This document shows positions 17,944-23,027 of a stretch of DNA of 64,000 bases, in pieces. This DNA comes from Phormidesmis priestleyi BC1401 (GTDB lineage: Bacteria; Cyanobacteriota; Cyanobacteriia; Leptolyngbyales; Leptolyngbyaceae). Where the stretch lies: positions 1 to 64,000 of the forward strand of contig NZ_LXYR01000006.1 in assembly GCF_001650195.1 (NCBI RefSeq), written 5' to 3'. Positions within the stretch are counted from its first letter, which is position 1. Each line of letters starts with the position of its first letter. The translations under genes and the position numbers were made by a program. The notes beneath the pieces are model-generated. The model did no database searches and was not told the DNA's origin. It saw only the letters and a program-made list of their open reading frames with translations.

Positions 17944-18387
17944 ATGGCGGACAGCTTACTACTCGCTGAAAAGGGACCAAAGATGATTGCGAAAGATCAA
18001 ATCATGCCACTCTTACTTGAAGCATGTCCTTCGTTTACTCAAAAGTGGGCTGAATATCGCGCTTTTTATGAGTGCAAAGATTTGCTTTATGTTGAACTTG
18101 ATACATTCGTAGATCATATCGTCGAGCTACTTAAAACCAATCGAACAGATGAATTCCCGGCAGTGTTTGAGATTATTGAGAGGCTTCATCTTGAGGGCGA
18201 TGATTATGTGAGAGAGGCAACTACCATCGGGGCATTAGAAGGGATTCAGAATGTTGCGAGGAATAGCGGAACAGATACTGAAGAATTTATCCAGTATTTA
18301 AGACCGGAATCCTTAAAATGGTGGCGACAGTTGAATGAGTTCTGGACAGGAAAAATACCTTTTGTTAGCGACATCAACAAAGCCTAA
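17944..18387 (+). CDS. Hypothetical protein (DUF7674-like)
   Basis: A 147-residue, mostly helical soluble protein. I think it belongs to the DUF7674 group, but I am not certain. Recognisable features are FTQKWAEYRAFYECKDLLYV, an acidic middle (ERLHLEGDDYVREAT) and a Trp-rich end, KWWRQLNEFWTG. Met14 (ATG 17983) is an equally likely start, because residues 1-13 look unrelated. There is no catalytic motif. It begins an accessory stretch of AT-richer genes. Proteins of this shape are sometimes immunity-like, but nothing here demonstrates that. Confidence 0.6.
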   Translation: MADSLLLAEKGPKMIAKDQIMPLLLEACPSFTQKWAEYRAFYECKDLLYVELDTFVDHIVELLKTNRTDEFPAVFEIIERLHLEGDDYVREATTIGALEGIQNVARNSGTDTEEFIQYLRPESLKWWRQLNEFWTGKIPFVSDINKA

Positions 18388-18440: not shown

Positions 18441-18656
18441 ATGATGACCTTATCTGATGTCCTTCCCGCTGCACGACAACTTTCTGTAACCGAGAAGCTC
18501 AAATTAATTAGAATCTTGGCAGAAGATCTAGAGATGGCGGAGGAAATTTCACCTTTAGAACCGTTCAAAGCCTACGACCTACCAACGCCTTATGATAGTT
18601 TTGGGGCTGGTGCAGTCTTGATGGAGTCACTCAAAAAATCAAATATGGGGCAGTAA
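18441..18656 (+). CDS. Small antitoxin-like protein paired with a retropepsin
   Basis: A 71-residue protein beginning MMTLSDVLPAARQLSVTEKL. The helical N-terminus (LIRILAEDLEM) resembles small cyanobacterial proteins that precede toxins or aspartyl-protease-like genes. The C-terminus is PYDSFGAGAVLMESL. The next gene begins 6 bp after its stop, so the two form a unit. The role is unknown; an antitoxin or adaptor is only a guess from size, fold and position. Confidence 0.6.
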   Translation: MMTLSDVLPAARQLSVTEKLKLIRILAEDLEMAEEISPLEPFKAYDLPTPYDSFGAGAVLMESLKKSNMGQ

Positions 18657-18662
18657 TGGCTT

Positions 18663-19067
18663 GTGCTTTTCAGCTATTCGACTACTAGCTCAACTCAAAA
18701 CGAATTTGACAGTTTGCCCAGAATTCCACTTGTGTTACGACGAGGCGATCGAAGCATTGAAACGGTTGGTTTAGTGGATAGTGGGGCTACAGTAAATGTC
18801 TTGCCTTATGAAGTTGGTCTCCAGTTGGGTGCTGTTTGGGACGAGCGCAGAGCCATCATTCGACTAACAGGTAATCTCAGTAATCAGCTAGCAATGCCTC
18901 TCTCCGCGATCGCTCAGATTGGAAAATTCACACCAACTGAATTAGTGTTTGCATGGGTAATGAGTCCGAACGCACCGCTAATTCTGGGTCAGACTAACTT
19001 TTTTCTTGAATTTGATGTTTGTTTCTATCGTTCTAGGTCAGAGTTTGAAGTCAAACCAAAAGCCTAG
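18663..19067 (+). CDS. Retropepsin-like aspartic protease domain protein
   Basis: A 134-residue protein with the aspartic-protease signature LVDSGATVNVLP (residues 36-47), the single-lobe form used by retropepsins, which work as homodimers. A hydrophobic flap region and the closing LILGQTNFFLEF (about 105-116) resemble the ILG-x-DF end of the fold. The start is a GTG at 18663; the overlapping ATG at 18656 is in another frame that stops quickly. There is no signal peptide, so it is cytoplasmic. It follows the small protein by 6 bp. Its substrate is unknown; the partner is a natural candidate. Confidence 0.75.
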   Translation: MLFSYSTTSSTQNEFDSLPRIPLVLRRGDRSIETVGLVDSGATVNVLPYEVGLQLGAVWDERRAIIRLTGNLSNQLAMPLSAIAQIGKFTPTELVFAWVMSPNAPLILGQTNFFLEFDVCFYRSRSEFEVKPKA

Positions 19068-19228: not shown

Positions 19229-19912
19229 TTAGTGTTGGGGGGTGTACCATTGAGTTAGATTGTTGACGGCACCCGATCGACGTTGAGCGTTAAACAAATC
19301 AACCGCAGTTTTGTTGTTGCTGTCATTGATTTTGATTTGAGCATCGATTCCATGGCGTGAAGTCGTGTTGTTCTCAGAGTTCATCTCTTTTGCAGTCTTA
19401 TTCGTATCTAATGTTGTAATCACGACAGCAGCAGCGTTGTTAAAATCACAATCTTTACCAACCACCACCGTAGAGGAGTCACGATTGTAAGAACTGGATT
19501 GACGCGATCCACTGGCTTGATTAGATGCGTTACCACGGTTGTAAGAACTTGAATTATTAGAAGAGCTAGAATCACTGCTTTGAGCTTGACCGCTACCACT
19601 TGCACCGATGATGCCAAACAGGTTAAAGCCACCGCCACCACCCTCTTTGTTGCTGCTGTTGCTCGACTGACTGCTAGCGTTTTTGCCCGAAGCCGAACTG
19701 TTGCTAGAAGCCGAGTTGTTACGAGCCTAGCTAGAGCCACCGTGATTGTTTTGAGTGTTGGAGCCTGACCCTACGTCGCTGCACTGAATCTTGCCTGCCA
19801 GTTGACCAAACAGAGCCGAGTTGTCATCTGCACGGACTGCGCTAACTGGAAGCAAAGACGTGAACAAAGCCGATGCGAGAACCAGAGAGCTAGAGAGTTT
19901 GACGAGTTTCAT
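19229..19912 (-). pseudogene. Secreted Asn/Ser-rich protein interrupted by one in-frame TAG
   Basis: Read as one frame this would be a secreted protein of about 227 residues. It starts at ATG 19912 with ribosome site AAGGAG and the signal peptide MKLVKLSSSLVLASALFTSL, cleaved after VSAVRA. The mature part has a Ser/Asn/Gly-rich linker and then GKDCDFNNAAAVVITTLD and NLTQWYTPQH at the end. A single TAG at 19727-19729 interrupts it after NHGGSSS, yet the frame stays open and of the same character for the remaining 166 codons. A strong terminator follows. It may be a recent nonsense mutation, a base-calling error, or a read-through codon. Function is unknown; the protein is probably surface or extracellular. 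Confidence 0.65.
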
Positions 19913-19960
19913 TGTATTTCTCCTTGTGAGTGTGGTTGTGAGGCGTGAACCTCTTACATT

Positions 19961-20038
19961 CACTCGGTAGGGACGGCTCGATCGGGTTATGCACCCCCTC
20001 AAAAATCACTTTCCGAGTCCCGCACCACTCGGTAGGGA
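19961..20038. promoter_or_regulatory. Direct repeats in the divergent promoter region
   Basis: CACTCGGTAGGGA occurs at 19961-19973 and again at 20026-20038, 65 bp apart, with an inverted partial CCGAGT between them. The repeats sit between the leader of the Asn/Ser-rich gene and tldD, so they could be operator sites. No regulator is identified. Confidence 0.4.
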
Positions 20039-20117: not shown

Positions 20118-21590
20118 ATGCAATCCCCCACCCTATTGATCTCAAAAGAACTGCCCCGGTTGACCTATCAGTCAACGCCCGATCGTTTCGATGAAACCTG
20201 GGAGGCTCCGCTATCCACTCTTTTGGGCTTGGGACGTGCGGCAGGTGCCGACTTTATTGAGTTTTTTCTAGAGCGAGTTAACTATATTAGCTGCATGGCA
20301 GAAGACGACGCGATTACTAGCATTTCGCCGCGTCTCTCGACGGGTGCCGGGGTGCGAGTGTTTCGTGGCAAAGCCGATTGCTATGTCAGCACCAATGATT
20401 TATCGTTTGGTGGTCTCAAAGCTGCCCTTGAGAAAGGCTTGTCGATTATGGGGTTGCAGCTTCCTGCCCCTAATTCTTATGTGCCAGAAATTAACCTGGA
20501 GTTGCTGAGAGATTACGCGGTCAAAAAAGGCAAAGAATCGTGGTTGGCAGACTGTAGCTCAATGCGCGAAATGGGCGATGTCTTATTAGCCGCAAATGGT
20601 GAATTGGCGACTCAGGCGAAGTTTGTGCAGTCTCGTCGTGCCGTCTATTTTCGAGATTGGCAAGAGGTTTTGGTGGCTTCTAGCGATGGCACGTTTGCGC
20701 GAGACATCCGGTTAGCGCAGTCCGTAGGCTATAGCCTGTTGTGTGCAGATGGTGAGCAACGATCGTCGATCAACAAGCGCGTCGGCAGCACTAGCGAACC
20801 TGGGTTCTTGAGAACCTGGACGTATGCCAAAGATGCTGAAGAAGTCGCGGATTCTGCCTCCAAAATGCTCTACGCCGACTATGTGGAGTCGGGTAACTAT
20901 CCCGTGGTGATGGCAAATGAGTTTGGGGGGGTAATCTTCCACGAAGCCTGTGGTCACTTGCTGGAGACGACGCAAATCGAGCGCAAGACTACACCGTTTG
21001 CTGAGAAGAAAGGCGAGAAGATTGCTCACGAAAATCTCACCGCTTGGGATGAAGGCATGACGAGCGGTGTGTTTGGCACGATCGACATGGACGATGAAGG
21101 AATGCCCGCTCAACGGACGCTCTTAATTGAGAATGGAATTCTGAAAAACTTCATCGCTGATCGAGCCGGATCAGTTCGCACAGGCAACCCTCGCACGGGC
21201 AGCGGTCGTCGTCAAGGCTACACCTATGCGGCAGCGAGTCGGATGCGGAACACATACATTGCACCGGGTAACTATTCGGTTGATGAGTTGTTTGCGTCGA
21301 TCGAGAAGGGCATCTATTGCAAAAAGATGGGCGGCGGTAGCGTTGGCTCGACGGGGCAGTTTAACTTTGCCGTAGACGAAGCCTATTTGATCGAGAATGG
21401 CAAACTCACGAAGCCTCTCAAAGGCGCGACTCTGATTGGTGAAGCGACCGAAATCATGAATAAGATTTCGATGTGCTCAAACGATTTGGGGCTGGCGGCT
21501 GGGTTCTGTGGATCTGTTAGCGGCAGCATTTACGTCACCGTTGGACAACCTCATATCAAGGTTGATTCCATTACGGTTGGTGGACGATAA
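20118..21590 (+). CDS. tldD: TldD-type metalloprotease subunit
   Basis: Catalytic subunit of the TldD/TldE heterodimer, a cytoplasmic zinc peptidase that trims unfolded peptides and, in some bacteria, ribosomally made peptide natural products. In the 490-residue protein the zinc motif HEACGH is at 275-280. The N-terminal [19 protein letters not shown] and C-terminal [19 protein letters not shown] and RDxxGS-like blocks are family hallmarks. It is followed about 97 bp later by tldE, separated by a 10-bp hairpin. A peptide natural-product precursor was not seen in the neighbourhood. Confidence 0.93.
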
Positions 21591-21630
21591 TTTTTGCGTT
21601 TAATGCGTTGTGTGCGTTGACGTTGGGGGA

Positions 21631-21653
21631 GACGTTTCGGTGAAACGTCTCTA
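21631..21653. repeat. Perfect 10-bp hairpin between tldD and tldE
   Basis: GAGACGTTTC and GAAACGTCTC form a perfect stem with loop GGT, followed by TACGGG. Similar GAGACGTT...CGTCTCTAC palindromes are common dispersed repeats in cyanobacteria, and a degenerate version lies inside the element at 45202-45318. It could modulate expression between the two subunits. Confidence 0.65.
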
Positions 21654-21686
21654 CGGGATTTTGAAACATTACGAAATGGATTTCTT

Positions 21687-23027
21687 ATGCCTAAAATTGA
21701 TGACATTGCGGCTTCGGCAAGAGAAACGGCTCAAAAGTTGGGCATCAAAAAATATGATGTGTATGGGTCAGCGATCGACGAAACCAGCGTTCAGGTCGAT
21801 CTCGGTGAACCTCAGCAAATGAAAGCGTCTCAGAGATCGAGCGTCACCGTTCGCGTTTGGAATGATGACAACTCGGTTGGGGTGACTTCAACGACGGATG
21901 TTGACCCGATCGGGCTAGAACTCGCATTAAAGACGGCTCACGAAGCCAGTTTCTTTGGCGTGAAGGAAAACGTGCCTGAATTTAGTCCTGAAGCGACGGC
22001 TCCCACGGCTGCCCATTCTGACGTTAAGACTCCTCAAGCGCCCGTTTCTAAACTGCTAGAAACATTGGTTGAGGCAGAGAAAGAACTATTGGCGGCACAT
22101 CCTGCGATTAAGGGCGTTCCGTATAACGGATTGGCGCAGAGAGATATCGATCGTTTCTATCTCAACAGCGATGGGGCAGTCCGCAATGAAGGTCATTCGT
22201 TTGCTTCGCTCTATCTCTACACCAAAACTGAAGAAGAAGGTAGAAAGCCCCGCAGTGCTGGCGCGTTTCGAGTCAGTCACGGGTTAGACGAGTTAGACAT
22301 CAACGGCTGTCTCAAAGAAGCGGCTGAGAAAACGATTAGTCATCTCAATTACGACAAGATAAAAACGGGCAAATATCGCGTCGTGTTCTCTCCTGAAGCG
22401 ATTCTCAGTTTGATTGGGGCGTTTTCTAATTTGTTTAATGCTCAGAGCATTCTCGATAAGCAAAGTCTCTCAACCCCCGAATCGTTGGGCACTCAGATTG
22501 CATCGCCGCTGCTCTCTCTCTGCGATGATGCCCTGCACCCCCAAAATGTGGGCGCTGGCACCTTTGACGGGGAAGGCACTCCGACTCGTCGCGTTCCGCT
22601 CATCACGAATGGCGTTTTGTCGGGCTTTTTGCACAGTGCTGGAACTGCCAAACGGCTCAACACTCAGCCCACCGGACACGCCCATATGGGGTCTAAGGTC
22701 ACGGTCAGTCCTCACTTCTATCACATTTTTCCAGGCGAATCTGCCGAGCAAGAATACAGCTTAGACACGGCAGAGAATGTGATTTTGATTGATGACTTGA
22801 GCGCTCTCCATGCGGGAGTTCAAGCGACACAAGGCTCGTTTTCACTGCCGTTTGACGGTTGGTTGGTGCAAAATGGCAAACGCACCAGCGTTGAATCGGC
22901 AACGGTTGCGGGTGACATTCGCGAACTGCTGAAATCGATTATTTATGTCGAGAAAGATCTAGAGTTTACCGGATCTGGGGTTGCCCCTAGAGTTTGGGTA
23001 GATGAATTATCGATTACGGGTGAATAA
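21687..23027 (+). CDS. tldE: TldE/PmbA-type subunit
   Basis: Non-catalytic partner of TldD. The 446-residue protein has the family layout: an N-terminal helical and beta domain with RSSVTVRVWNDDNSVGVTSTTD, and a C-terminal domain with GVLSGFLHSAGTAKRLN, GQ-like loops and FDGWLVQNGKRTSVESATV. It lacks the HExxxH zinc motif found in TldD, as expected for TldE. The start is the ATG at 21687. Codon style matches tldD. The pair is probably co-transcribed despite the hairpin between them. Confidence 0.9.
   Translation: MPKIDDIAASARETAQKLGIKKYDVYGSAIDETSVQVDLGEPQQMKASQRSSVTVRVWNDDNSVGVTSTTDVDPIGLELALKTAHEASFFGVKENVPEFSPEATAPTAAHSDVKTPQAPVSKLLETLVEAEKELLAAHPAIKGVPYNGLAQRDIDRFYLNSDGAVRNEGHSFASLYLYTKTEEEGRKPRSAGAFRVSHGLDELDINGCLKEAAEKTISHLNYDKIKTGKYRVVFSPEAILSLIGAFSNLFNAQSILDKQSLSTPESLGTQIASPLLSLCDDALHPQNVGAGTFDGEGTPTRRVPLITNGVLSGFLHSAGTAKRLNTQPTGHAHMGSKVTVSPHFYHIFPGESAEQEYSLDTAENVILIDDLSALHAGVQATQGSFSLPFDGWLVQNGKRTSVESATVAGDIRELLKSIIYVEKDLEFTGSGVAPRVWVDELSITGE

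What the first reader, a model, noticed from the sequence alone, without database searches (positions are those of the whole stretch)
18441..19067. Small protein plus retropepsin-like protease as a two-gene unit
A 71-residue helix-rich protein precedes by 6 bp a 134-residue single-lobe aspartic protease-like protein with DSGATVNVLP. Stand-alone cytoplasmic retropepsins in bacteria are poorly understood. The tight pairing suggests that the small protein is substrate, inhibitor or antitoxin.
Basis: partly seen in the sequence, partly recalled or inferred. Interest (0 to 1): 0.55.

Follow-up and report, generated by a model that had tools for sequence, protein, structure and literature searches.

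The report
Protease-based candidate toxin-antitoxin gene pair
A small gene and an HIV-protease-like gene sit side by side as a two-gene unit that is scattered through cyanobacteria, and the pattern in which the two genes decay suggests that the protease is harmful unless its small partner is present.

Summary
Gene A (18441-18656, 71 aa) is followed after 6 bp by gene B (18663-19067, 134 aa, GTG start), a retropepsin-like aspartic protease.

The pairing is real. All 54 full-length B frames in 78 loci of the GTDB collection have an intact A upstream. In 386 cyanobacterial-phylum genomes 97 of 99 full-length B frames do; the two exceptions also lost the 5' end of B. The reverse is common: 13 intact A genes precede a broken B, and 38 have no B hit. 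Flanking genes are not conserved.

The catalytic Asp and Gly are invariant in 120 of 120 distinct full-length B sequences. The model of B is a retropepsin closest to Rickettsia APRc (Z 13.8).

I read it as a type-II-like toxin-antitoxin module with a protease as toxin, confidence 0.5. Toxicity, cleavage and binding are untested. The pair is already catalogued, without function, as PADLOC phage defence candidate PDC-M52. I saw no paper on it, nor on a retropepsin toxin, in the searches made (some listings capped).

The parts
18441..18656 (+). Gene A, 71 aa (likely start at the second ATG, 18444): small helical protein, candidate antitoxin, PDC-M52A-like; N-terminal helical hairpin, conserved Y-x-[LV]-x-[TS]-P-Y loop, C-terminal helix
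   Evidence: PDC-M52A E 6e-4; conserved L14 K19 L26 Y45 P50 L60
18657..18662 (+). 6 bp spacer between A stop and B start (same reading frame)
   Evidence: close orthologues mostly have a 3-14 bp gap, the second subfamily mostly an 8 bp overlap
18663..19067 (+). Gene B, 134 aa, GTG start: retropepsin-like aspartic protease, candidate toxin, PDC-M52B
   Evidence: PDC-M52B E 5e-43; D39, G41, G109 invariant
18777..18806 (+). Catalytic motif DSGATVNVLP, B residues 39-48
18978..18992 (+). LILGQ, B residues 106-110: the hydrophobic-hydrophobic-Gly motif of retropepsins
   Evidence: motif name recalled

Best explanation
A and B form a mobile two-gene toxin-antitoxin-like module. B is an active retropepsin-type aspartic protease without a signal-like start by eye, so probably cytoplasmic; by analogy it works as a homodimer (inferred). 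It damages the host cell when free, by cutting one or more host proteins (target unknown, inferred). A is translated first, tightly coupled to B, and holds B inactive by direct binding (inferred), probably through its conserved proline/tyrosine loop and C-terminal helix. Loss, dilution or destruction of A, for instance during phage takeover or when the DNA is lost, would free B (inferred). Shown: the gene pairing, its order and close spacing, invariant catalytic residues, the predicted fold, dispersal without conserved neighbours, and decay that spares A. Not shown: toxicity, binding, cleavage, trigger.
For: (1) Full-length B almost never occurs without A. In the 78 GTDB-collection loci, fetched with B, 54 of 54 (counted from the list). 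Over all of L001-L139, 102 of 102, of which 83 frames lie in loci fetched with B and 19 in loci fetched with A, where pairing is a weaker test; loci overlap. In 386 phylum genomes, 97 of 99; in the two without A (L180, L195) the 5' end of B is missing too. (2) A often outlives B: 13 A genes, intact by rule (no stop, at least 61 profile positions, or read by eye for long A), precede a broken or truncated B and 38 have no B hit, of which 7 keep a short remnant of B. 51 against 2 is unlikely from gene length alone (402:213; binomial p 7e-8; p 2e-6 for 42 groups of A at 90% identity, one locus of another sample included). The GTDB set agrees: 10 of 78 loci have intact A with broken B, none intact B without A (by eye). 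(3) A without intact B shows no significant relaxation (median dN/dS 0.14, 40 usable of 48, against 0.10, 91 usable of 107; p 0.11). (4) B keeps its catalytic Asp and Gly in 120 of 120 distinct full-length sequences and models as a retropepsin. (5) It behaves as an accessory module: B matches in 77 of 386 genomes, up to 5 matches each; no shared flanks (largest shared flank family in 6 of 51 loci); on 3 plasmid records, one near HicBA. TA families recur near it: PIN 5, PemK 3, UPF0175 2, MazE 2 of 146 flank ORFs; in 99 control ORFs BrnT 1 among the families shown. (6) A has a weak Unstab_antitox-like N-terminus (14 of 41 members at E <= 1, best 0.007).
Against: No experiment. Decay that spares A could also arise if A has a job of its own, or if loss of A silences B by lost translational coupling so that B then decays unseen. 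Loci that fit this exist and are not in the 51:2 count: partial B without any A in 10 of 78 GTDB loci (L113, L125, L126, L128-L131, L133, L136, L139; three of them, L128, L130, L133, lie at a contig end) and both genes damaged in 3 (L097, L118, L135) (by eye); in the 386 genomes L196, L197, L199 (partial B, no A), L198, L202, L215 (both damaged). Some A genes called intact have changed ends (L140, L146, L159, L170, L178 at the C-terminus; L164, L173 at the N-terminus). No known TA pair or neutral operon was run as a yardstick. A is below the curated cut-off of every antitoxin model it hits, and no DNA-binding domain was recognised. Neighbourhood tables are cut at 25 families (of 135 and 77), so the TA excess is only suggestive; Uma2 does not differ (4 and 3), and PADLOC families are not clearly richer near pairs than in controls. 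Retropepsins are usually narrow in specificity (recalled), so a toxic protease needs a specific host target, and none is known.
Confidence: 0.5

Rival explanations
1. Regulated protease with A as substrate or pro-peptide-like switch: B is harmless and cuts A (or A carries the cleavage site); A without B is a regulator whose signal is lost.
For: The most conserved part of A outside the hairpin is an extended Tyr/Pro loop (Y45, P50), predicted as loop at pLDDT about 73, which resembles a protease-accessible peptide. Bacterial retropepsins with one dedicated partner or substrate exist: RimB-RimK/RpsF (PMC11957791, passages).
Against: It does not explain why full-length B is not found without A while intact A without B is common, unless A has an independent benefit. 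Lone A genes show no significant loss of constraint, which fits either.
Confidence: 0.2
2. Anti-phage two-gene system that is not addictive: A senses infection or holds B, and B cuts phage proteins or a host death factor.
For: PADLOC-DB lists the pair as phage defence candidate PDC-M52A/B (38 of 41 A1 members hit PDC-M52A).
Against: Candidate status is not a test. 16 neighbourhoods were not clearly richer in defence genes than controls (25 families shown each). No phage-record match and no confirmed viral-contig match.
Confidence: 0.15
3. A is a chaperone or activator needed for B to fold or dimerise, and B is an ordinary accessory protease.
For: Close spacing and order; pLDDT of B, most of all in the flap region, is higher in the A-B fused model.
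Against: An activator should be lost as readily as its client; intact B without A should then be as common as intact A without B, which is not seen.
Confidence: 0.1
4. The asymmetry is an artefact of polarity, gene length and search thresholds, and the pair has no joint function beyond a shared transcript.
For: B is about twice as long as A and lies downstream; loci broken in both genes, or with partial B and no A, exist and were not counted.
Against: Length alone gives p 7e-8; the pairing holds across two subfamilies and two phyla without shared flanks.
Confidence: 0.05

Closest known systems
PADLOC phage defence candidate PDC-M52 (A and B models)
   Same: Both proteins hit the two models
   Different: Catalogue entry shown without function; no paper in the searched library holds the name. 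The window's A hits only weakly over its N-terminal half (6e-4, residues 2-33)
Bacterial retropepsins: Rickettsia APRc (PDB 5c9f), Pseudomonas RimB and RloA
   Same: Single-lobe clan AA fold with D[TS]G; model matches 5c9f_A at Z 13.8, rmsd 2.2, 117 aligned
   Different: 15% identity to 5c9f_A (the name APRc is recalled, the entry title says retropepsin-like aspartic protease from Rickettsia conorii); RimB is partnered with RimK, RloA carries signal peptides (PMC11957791, PMC12239564, passages); here the partner is a 70 aa helical protein
Prokaryotic single-domain clan AA peptidases COG3577/COG5550
   Same: About 120-residue single-domain proteases in prokaryotes (PMC2642776, passages)
   Different: No COG model was run; no partner gene is mentioned in the passages seen
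Type II toxin-antitoxin systems (VapBC, MazEF, HicBA and others)
   Same: Two small adjacent genes, small partner first, patchy, on plasmids and near other TA genes, decay sparing the small partner
   Different: B hits no known toxin family in the libraries scanned; the 2009 survey of type II systems holds no 'retropepsin', 'aspartyl' or 'COG5550' (PMC2701414, word search of main text). Its Zn-protease COG2856 pairs are the nearest protease analogy, and the survey finally prefers a repressor-cleaving role for the fused form (passages)

Membership tests
PDC-M52 (PADLOC candidate) | B matches PDC-M52B model | tested here: met
   5e-43 and 1.7e-35
PDC-M52 (PADLOC candidate) | A matches PDC-M52A model and lies next to B | tested here: met
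   6.3e-4, residues 2-33; 38 of 41 A1 members at E <= 0.01, best 4.7e-12. PADLOC's own thresholds and distance rule were not applied
PDC-M52 (PADLOC candidate) | protects against phage | not testable with these tools
   no experiment
Retropepsin-like clan AA protease | D[TS]G catalytic motif | tested here: met
   Asp and Gly invariant in 120 of 120 distinct full-length B; middle residue S or T in 118, R in 2
Retropepsin-like clan AA protease | retropepsin fold | tested here: met
   predicted model only, pLDDT 88.3, Z 13.8 to 5c9f_A
Retropepsin-like clan AA protease | Pfam curated cut-off (gag-asp_proteas or Asp_protease_2) | tested here: not met
   window B 16.5 and 16.3 bits against 28.2 and 24.3; relatives score better, best E 6e-8, 32 of 41 at E <= 0.1 for Asp_protease_2
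Retropepsin-like clan AA protease | homodimer with peptidase activity | not testable with these tools
   no experiment
Type II toxin-antitoxin | adjacent, co-oriented, conserved pair | tested here: met
   54 of 54 GTDB-collection full-length B and 97 of 99
Type II toxin-antitoxin | toxin not kept without antitoxin, antitoxin kept without toxin | tested here: met
   51 A-only against 2 B-only loci, the latter lacking the 5' end of B; no yardstick pair run, doubly damaged loci not counted
Type II toxin-antitoxin | toxicity of B and neutralisation by A | not testable with these tools
   no experiment
Type II toxin-antitoxin | antitoxin with DNA-binding domain and autoregulation (usual, not universal) | tested here: inconclusive
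   no DNA-binding family recognised in A; operator not examined
Unstab_antitox PF09720 | Pfam cut-off | tested here: not met
   13.5 against 23.3 bits

The most novel reading that the evidence does not exclude
This is the first toxin-antitoxin class whose toxin is an HIV-protease-like aspartic protease: B kills or arrests by cutting a specific host protein, and A is a dedicated proteic inhibitor that occludes the cleft or the dimer interface, making it a natural, evolving inhibitor of a retropepsin.
Probability: 0.38. Interest if true: 0.8.

Novelty: new variant of a known kind. Interest (0 to 1): 0.56.

Why it matters
Most characterised bacterial toxin-antitoxin toxins attack RNA, translation or gyrase (recalled). 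A protease toxin of the retropepsin fold would widen the class and give a small natural inhibitor of that fold to study. It would also give bacterial retropepsins, few of which are characterised (PMC12239564, passage), a new kind of role beside RimB and RloA, and give the unexplained catalogue entry PDC-M52 a testable mechanism: express B alone, then with A.

Tried and rejected
Stand-alone protease: rejected, since full-length B without A was found only in two loci that also lost the 5' end of B. Apparent gaps in pairing were followed up: 14 of 16 B frames without a listed A have an A frame of 73-136 aa as read from the first start codon; three B frames with a partial A hit (L048, L049, L055) have an intact A, in L055 with a different N-terminus. 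Four rows flagged with a stop (L200, L203, L204, L206) proved intact; the stop was the gene's own end.

Lone A genes paired with another toxin: no recurrent partner seen; three have a separate TA-like pair nearby as read by eye from the ORFs (L146 RelE-like, L172 and L177 HicBA-like; names recalled, not scanned).

Conserved neighbours: the window's rpe, DUF7674, tldD and tldE were sought in 237 other held loci; no hit, while B itself hits 184. Many of these loci have short flanks. TldD/TldE, known to act on the CcdA antitoxin (recalled), looks like a chance neighbour on this evidence.

Phage carriage: no match in 50,697 phage records; in viral contigs 57 pattern stretches, none confirmed.

The A-B fused model was made to look for an interface. 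pLDDT in the flap region of B rises from 69-79 alone to 88-92, but it rises elsewhere in B too, pTM is 0.65 against 0.82 and the coordinates cannot be read here, so no interface is claimed. VIA-align rows for the fused model cover essentially the B part (model 61-208), so the fold of A was not tested.

Neighbourhood scan: flank ORFs up to 350 aa of 16 of 20 case loci (146 of 174) and 16 of 20 control loci (99 of 127) were scanned; larger ORFs were left out; tables show 25 families only.

PDB sequence search for B gave only two chance chalcone synthase rows (E 0.32). PHROGs: no hit for A or B at E <= 1. The phrase hit in PMC9561280 was 'protease-dependent process', not relevant.

Literature: one search listed 12 papers, one opened (PMC2642776); one search listed 25 of 5,894, one opened (PMC11957791); two searches listed 8 and 13, one opened (PMC9561280); the rest were judged by title and start of abstract.

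Not done: operator search upstream of A, co-evolution analysis (too few pairs), yardstick counts on known TA pairs or ordinary operons.

Full report
What is there. A (18441-18656) encodes 71 residues; orthologues start at its second ATG. Six bases after its TAA stop, in the same frame, B (18663-19067) starts at a GTG and encodes 134 residues with DSGATVNVLP at residues 39-48 and LILGQ at 106-110. Pfam sees both only below its cut-offs (A: Unstab_antitox 13.5 of 23.3 bits; B: gag-asp_proteas 16.5 of 28.2 and Asp_protease_2 16.3 of 24.3). NCBIfam has nothing above cut-off. PADLOC-DB holds the pair as phage defence candidate PDC-M52: B at 5e-43, A at 6e-4. So the pair is catalogued but not explained; no paper in the searched library contains the name.

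B is a retropepsin by sequence and model. Across 41 aligned B proteins D39, G41, G52, W59, G70, F96, W98, G109, F113 and F117 are among the 15 invariant columns. In all loci held at the time, 120 distinct full-length B sequences keep the Asp and the Gly without exception. The AlphaFold model (pLDDT 88.3, pTM 0.82) matches a Rickettsia conorii retropepsin best (5c9f_A, Z 13.8, rmsd 2.2 over 117), then Ddi1 protease domains and retroviral proteases at Z 10-12. Foldseek agrees on the fold, with E about 2e-3 at best. Invariance of the catalytic residues over this divergence argues that B is an active enzyme (inference).

A is a small helical protein: helices 4-12 and 16-33, a loop 34-52, and a helix 53-68 (fused model). 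Its best conserved positions are L14, K19, L26 in the hairpin and Y45, P50, L60 in the loop and last helix. One group has a longer A of about 86 aa. In locus L055 the N-terminal part is of another kind while the last part, with the WSPYDAFEAA stretch, is kept, which hints that the C-terminal part recognises B (inference from one case).

The pair is the unit. Among the 78 loci of the GTDB collection, fetched with B, 54 of 54 full-length B frames have an intact A upstream (counted from the list). The other 24 hold partial or damaged B, or in one case (L127) a B just outside the length rule with A present: by eye, 10 have intact A with broken B (L104, L105, L108, L110, L111, L114, L117, L132, L137, L138), 10 have partial B and no A hit (L113, L125, L126, L128-L131, L133, L136, L139; L128, L130 and L133 lie at a contig end), and 3 have both damaged (L097, L118, L135). 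Over all of L001-L139 there are 102 full-length B frames, overlapping loci counted more than once, and all have A: 99 by the profile rule and three on inspection; 83 lie in loci fetched with B and 19 in loci fetched with A. Spacing is close: a 3-14 bp gap in close orthologues (one genome has A running 112 bp into B), and in the second subfamily mostly an 8 bp overlap that suggests translational coupling. Flanks are not shared: 230 flank ORFs of 51 loci form no family present in more than 6 loci, and none of four neighbours of the window's pair recurs in 237 other held loci (B itself hits 184). B occurs in cyanobacteria and in bins labelled planctomycetes, with partial matches in bins labelled Gracilibacteria and Armatimonadetes (labels are the submitters'). 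The own genome has a second intact pair (G000:C28) and an A with a stop flagged inside the match (G000:C35). Three plasmid records carry B; on Rippkaea orientalis pP880101 a 72 aa hypothetical gene overlaps it by 8 bp and HicBA and insertion sequences lie nearby.

Decay is one-sided. I searched 386 genomes of the phylum (at least 90% complete) with profiles of B and A. B matches in 77 of 386 and A in 96 of 386; both printed lists are cut at their weak end. Full-length stop-free B frames (at least 111 of 138 profile positions) number 99: 96 by the rule, plus three whose flagged stop is the gene's own end. Of these, 97 have an intact A directly upstream: 80 from the lists (one flagged stop resolved), 14 found after fetching the DNA, and 3 more. 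The two without A (L180, L195) have also lost the 5' end of B; whether they are still expressed is unknown. In the other direction 130 A frames in the printed list pass the intact rule (no stop, at least 61 profile positions): 79 precede an intact B, 13 a broken or partial B, and 38 no B hit. Three of those 13 (L203, L204, L206) turned out to precede an intact B. Three further intact A genes with broken B came from the fetched set: L205 and L216 with the long A, and L218. That leaves 13 loci with intact A and broken B (L201, L205, L207-L214, L216-L218). L202 and L215, where A also lacks its first residues, L198, where both are damaged, and L196, L197, L199, with partial B and no A, were set aside. 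Of the 38 loci without a B hit, 7 keep a visible stub of B (L141, L142, L148, L153, L156, L158, L174; L148 and L158 by eye), and a few of their A genes have changed ends. If breakage simply followed gene length (402 against 213 bases), 51 against 2 has a binomial p of 7e-8, or 2e-6 for 42 groups of A at 90% identity (the grouping includes one A-only locus, L178, from the 58-genome sample). A genes without intact B show no significant rise of dN/dS against their nearest paired relative (0.14 and 0.10, p 0.11), so A is either still useful or the losses are recent. This is the signature expected if B is harmful without A. It is not proof: loss of A may silence B and lead to the partial B loci without A that were also seen, and no yardstick pair was counted.

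How it most likely works. B is the harmful enzyme and A its inhibitor, made first from the same message. When A falls below B, B cuts a host protein and growth stops. The trigger and target are unknown. Regulation of B by cleavage of A, a non-addictive phage defence, and a chaperone role of A remain possible (see rivals). A fused A-B model raised confidence in B, most in the flap region (69-79 alone, 88-92 fused), but with a lower pTM (0.65 against 0.82), and its contacts could not be read, so the interface is open.

Neighbourhoods. In 16 loci the flank ORFs include PIN 5, PemK 3, UPF0175 2 and MazE 2 of 146, while the 16 control stretches 150 kb away show BrnT 1 of 99 among the families listed. 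PADLOC families do not separate the two sets. The pair thus looks like an item of TA-rich genome regions rather than of classical defence islands, with the caution that only 25 families per set are shown.

Comparison and novelty. The 2009 survey of type II systems (main text word search) names no aspartyl or retropepsin toxin; the Synechocystis TA survey (word search) has no 'retropepsin' and no 'peptidase', and 'protease' only in its reference list. A text search for retropepsin with bacteria and antitoxin gave no paper; those for protease toxins of TA systems and for aspartyl protease with anti-phage defence gave no listing that looked relevant by title and abstract. Bacterial retropepsins with known roles in the papers seen in passages (RimB, RloA) have other partners. 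I therefore file the fold as known, the pair as a catalogued candidate, and the TA reading as a new variant of a known kind, unproven.

Noticed in passing
19229-20002 (-): A secreted-looking Ser/Asn-rich protein frame (signal-like start MKLVKLSSSLVLASALFTSLLPVSAVRA, by eye) is split by one in-frame TAG, which ends the first part at about 19727; no Pfam hit for the first part. Broken gene or sequencing error.
   Followed up: partly
17944-18387 (+): DUF7674 protein (E 2e-26) directly upstream of the pair; not found in other held loci.
   Followed up: partly
20118-23027 (+): Adjacent TldD/TldE-type metallopeptidase genes about 1 kb downstream of the pair; TldD/E is known to act on the CcdA antitoxin (recalled), but the neighbourhood is not conserved in the held loci.
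   Followed up: partly
L055, - strand, about 1150-1490 in reverse-complement coordinates: An A protein with a different N-terminal part but the same C-terminal WSPYDAFEAA stretch next to an intact B: a possible domain swap.
   Followed up: no
L179 (G174:C120:8739-9077) and similar rows with 207-269 aa frames: Distant, longer retropepsin-like frames in cyanobacteria that match B weakly (E about 1e-9 to 1e-5); no A in the printed list lies near them by eye, and only L179 was fetched (no A). Possibly another clan AA family.
   Followed up: no
L140-L178: Many lone A genes without B; if they have a function of their own (for example protection against incoming B) it is unknown.
   Followed up: partly
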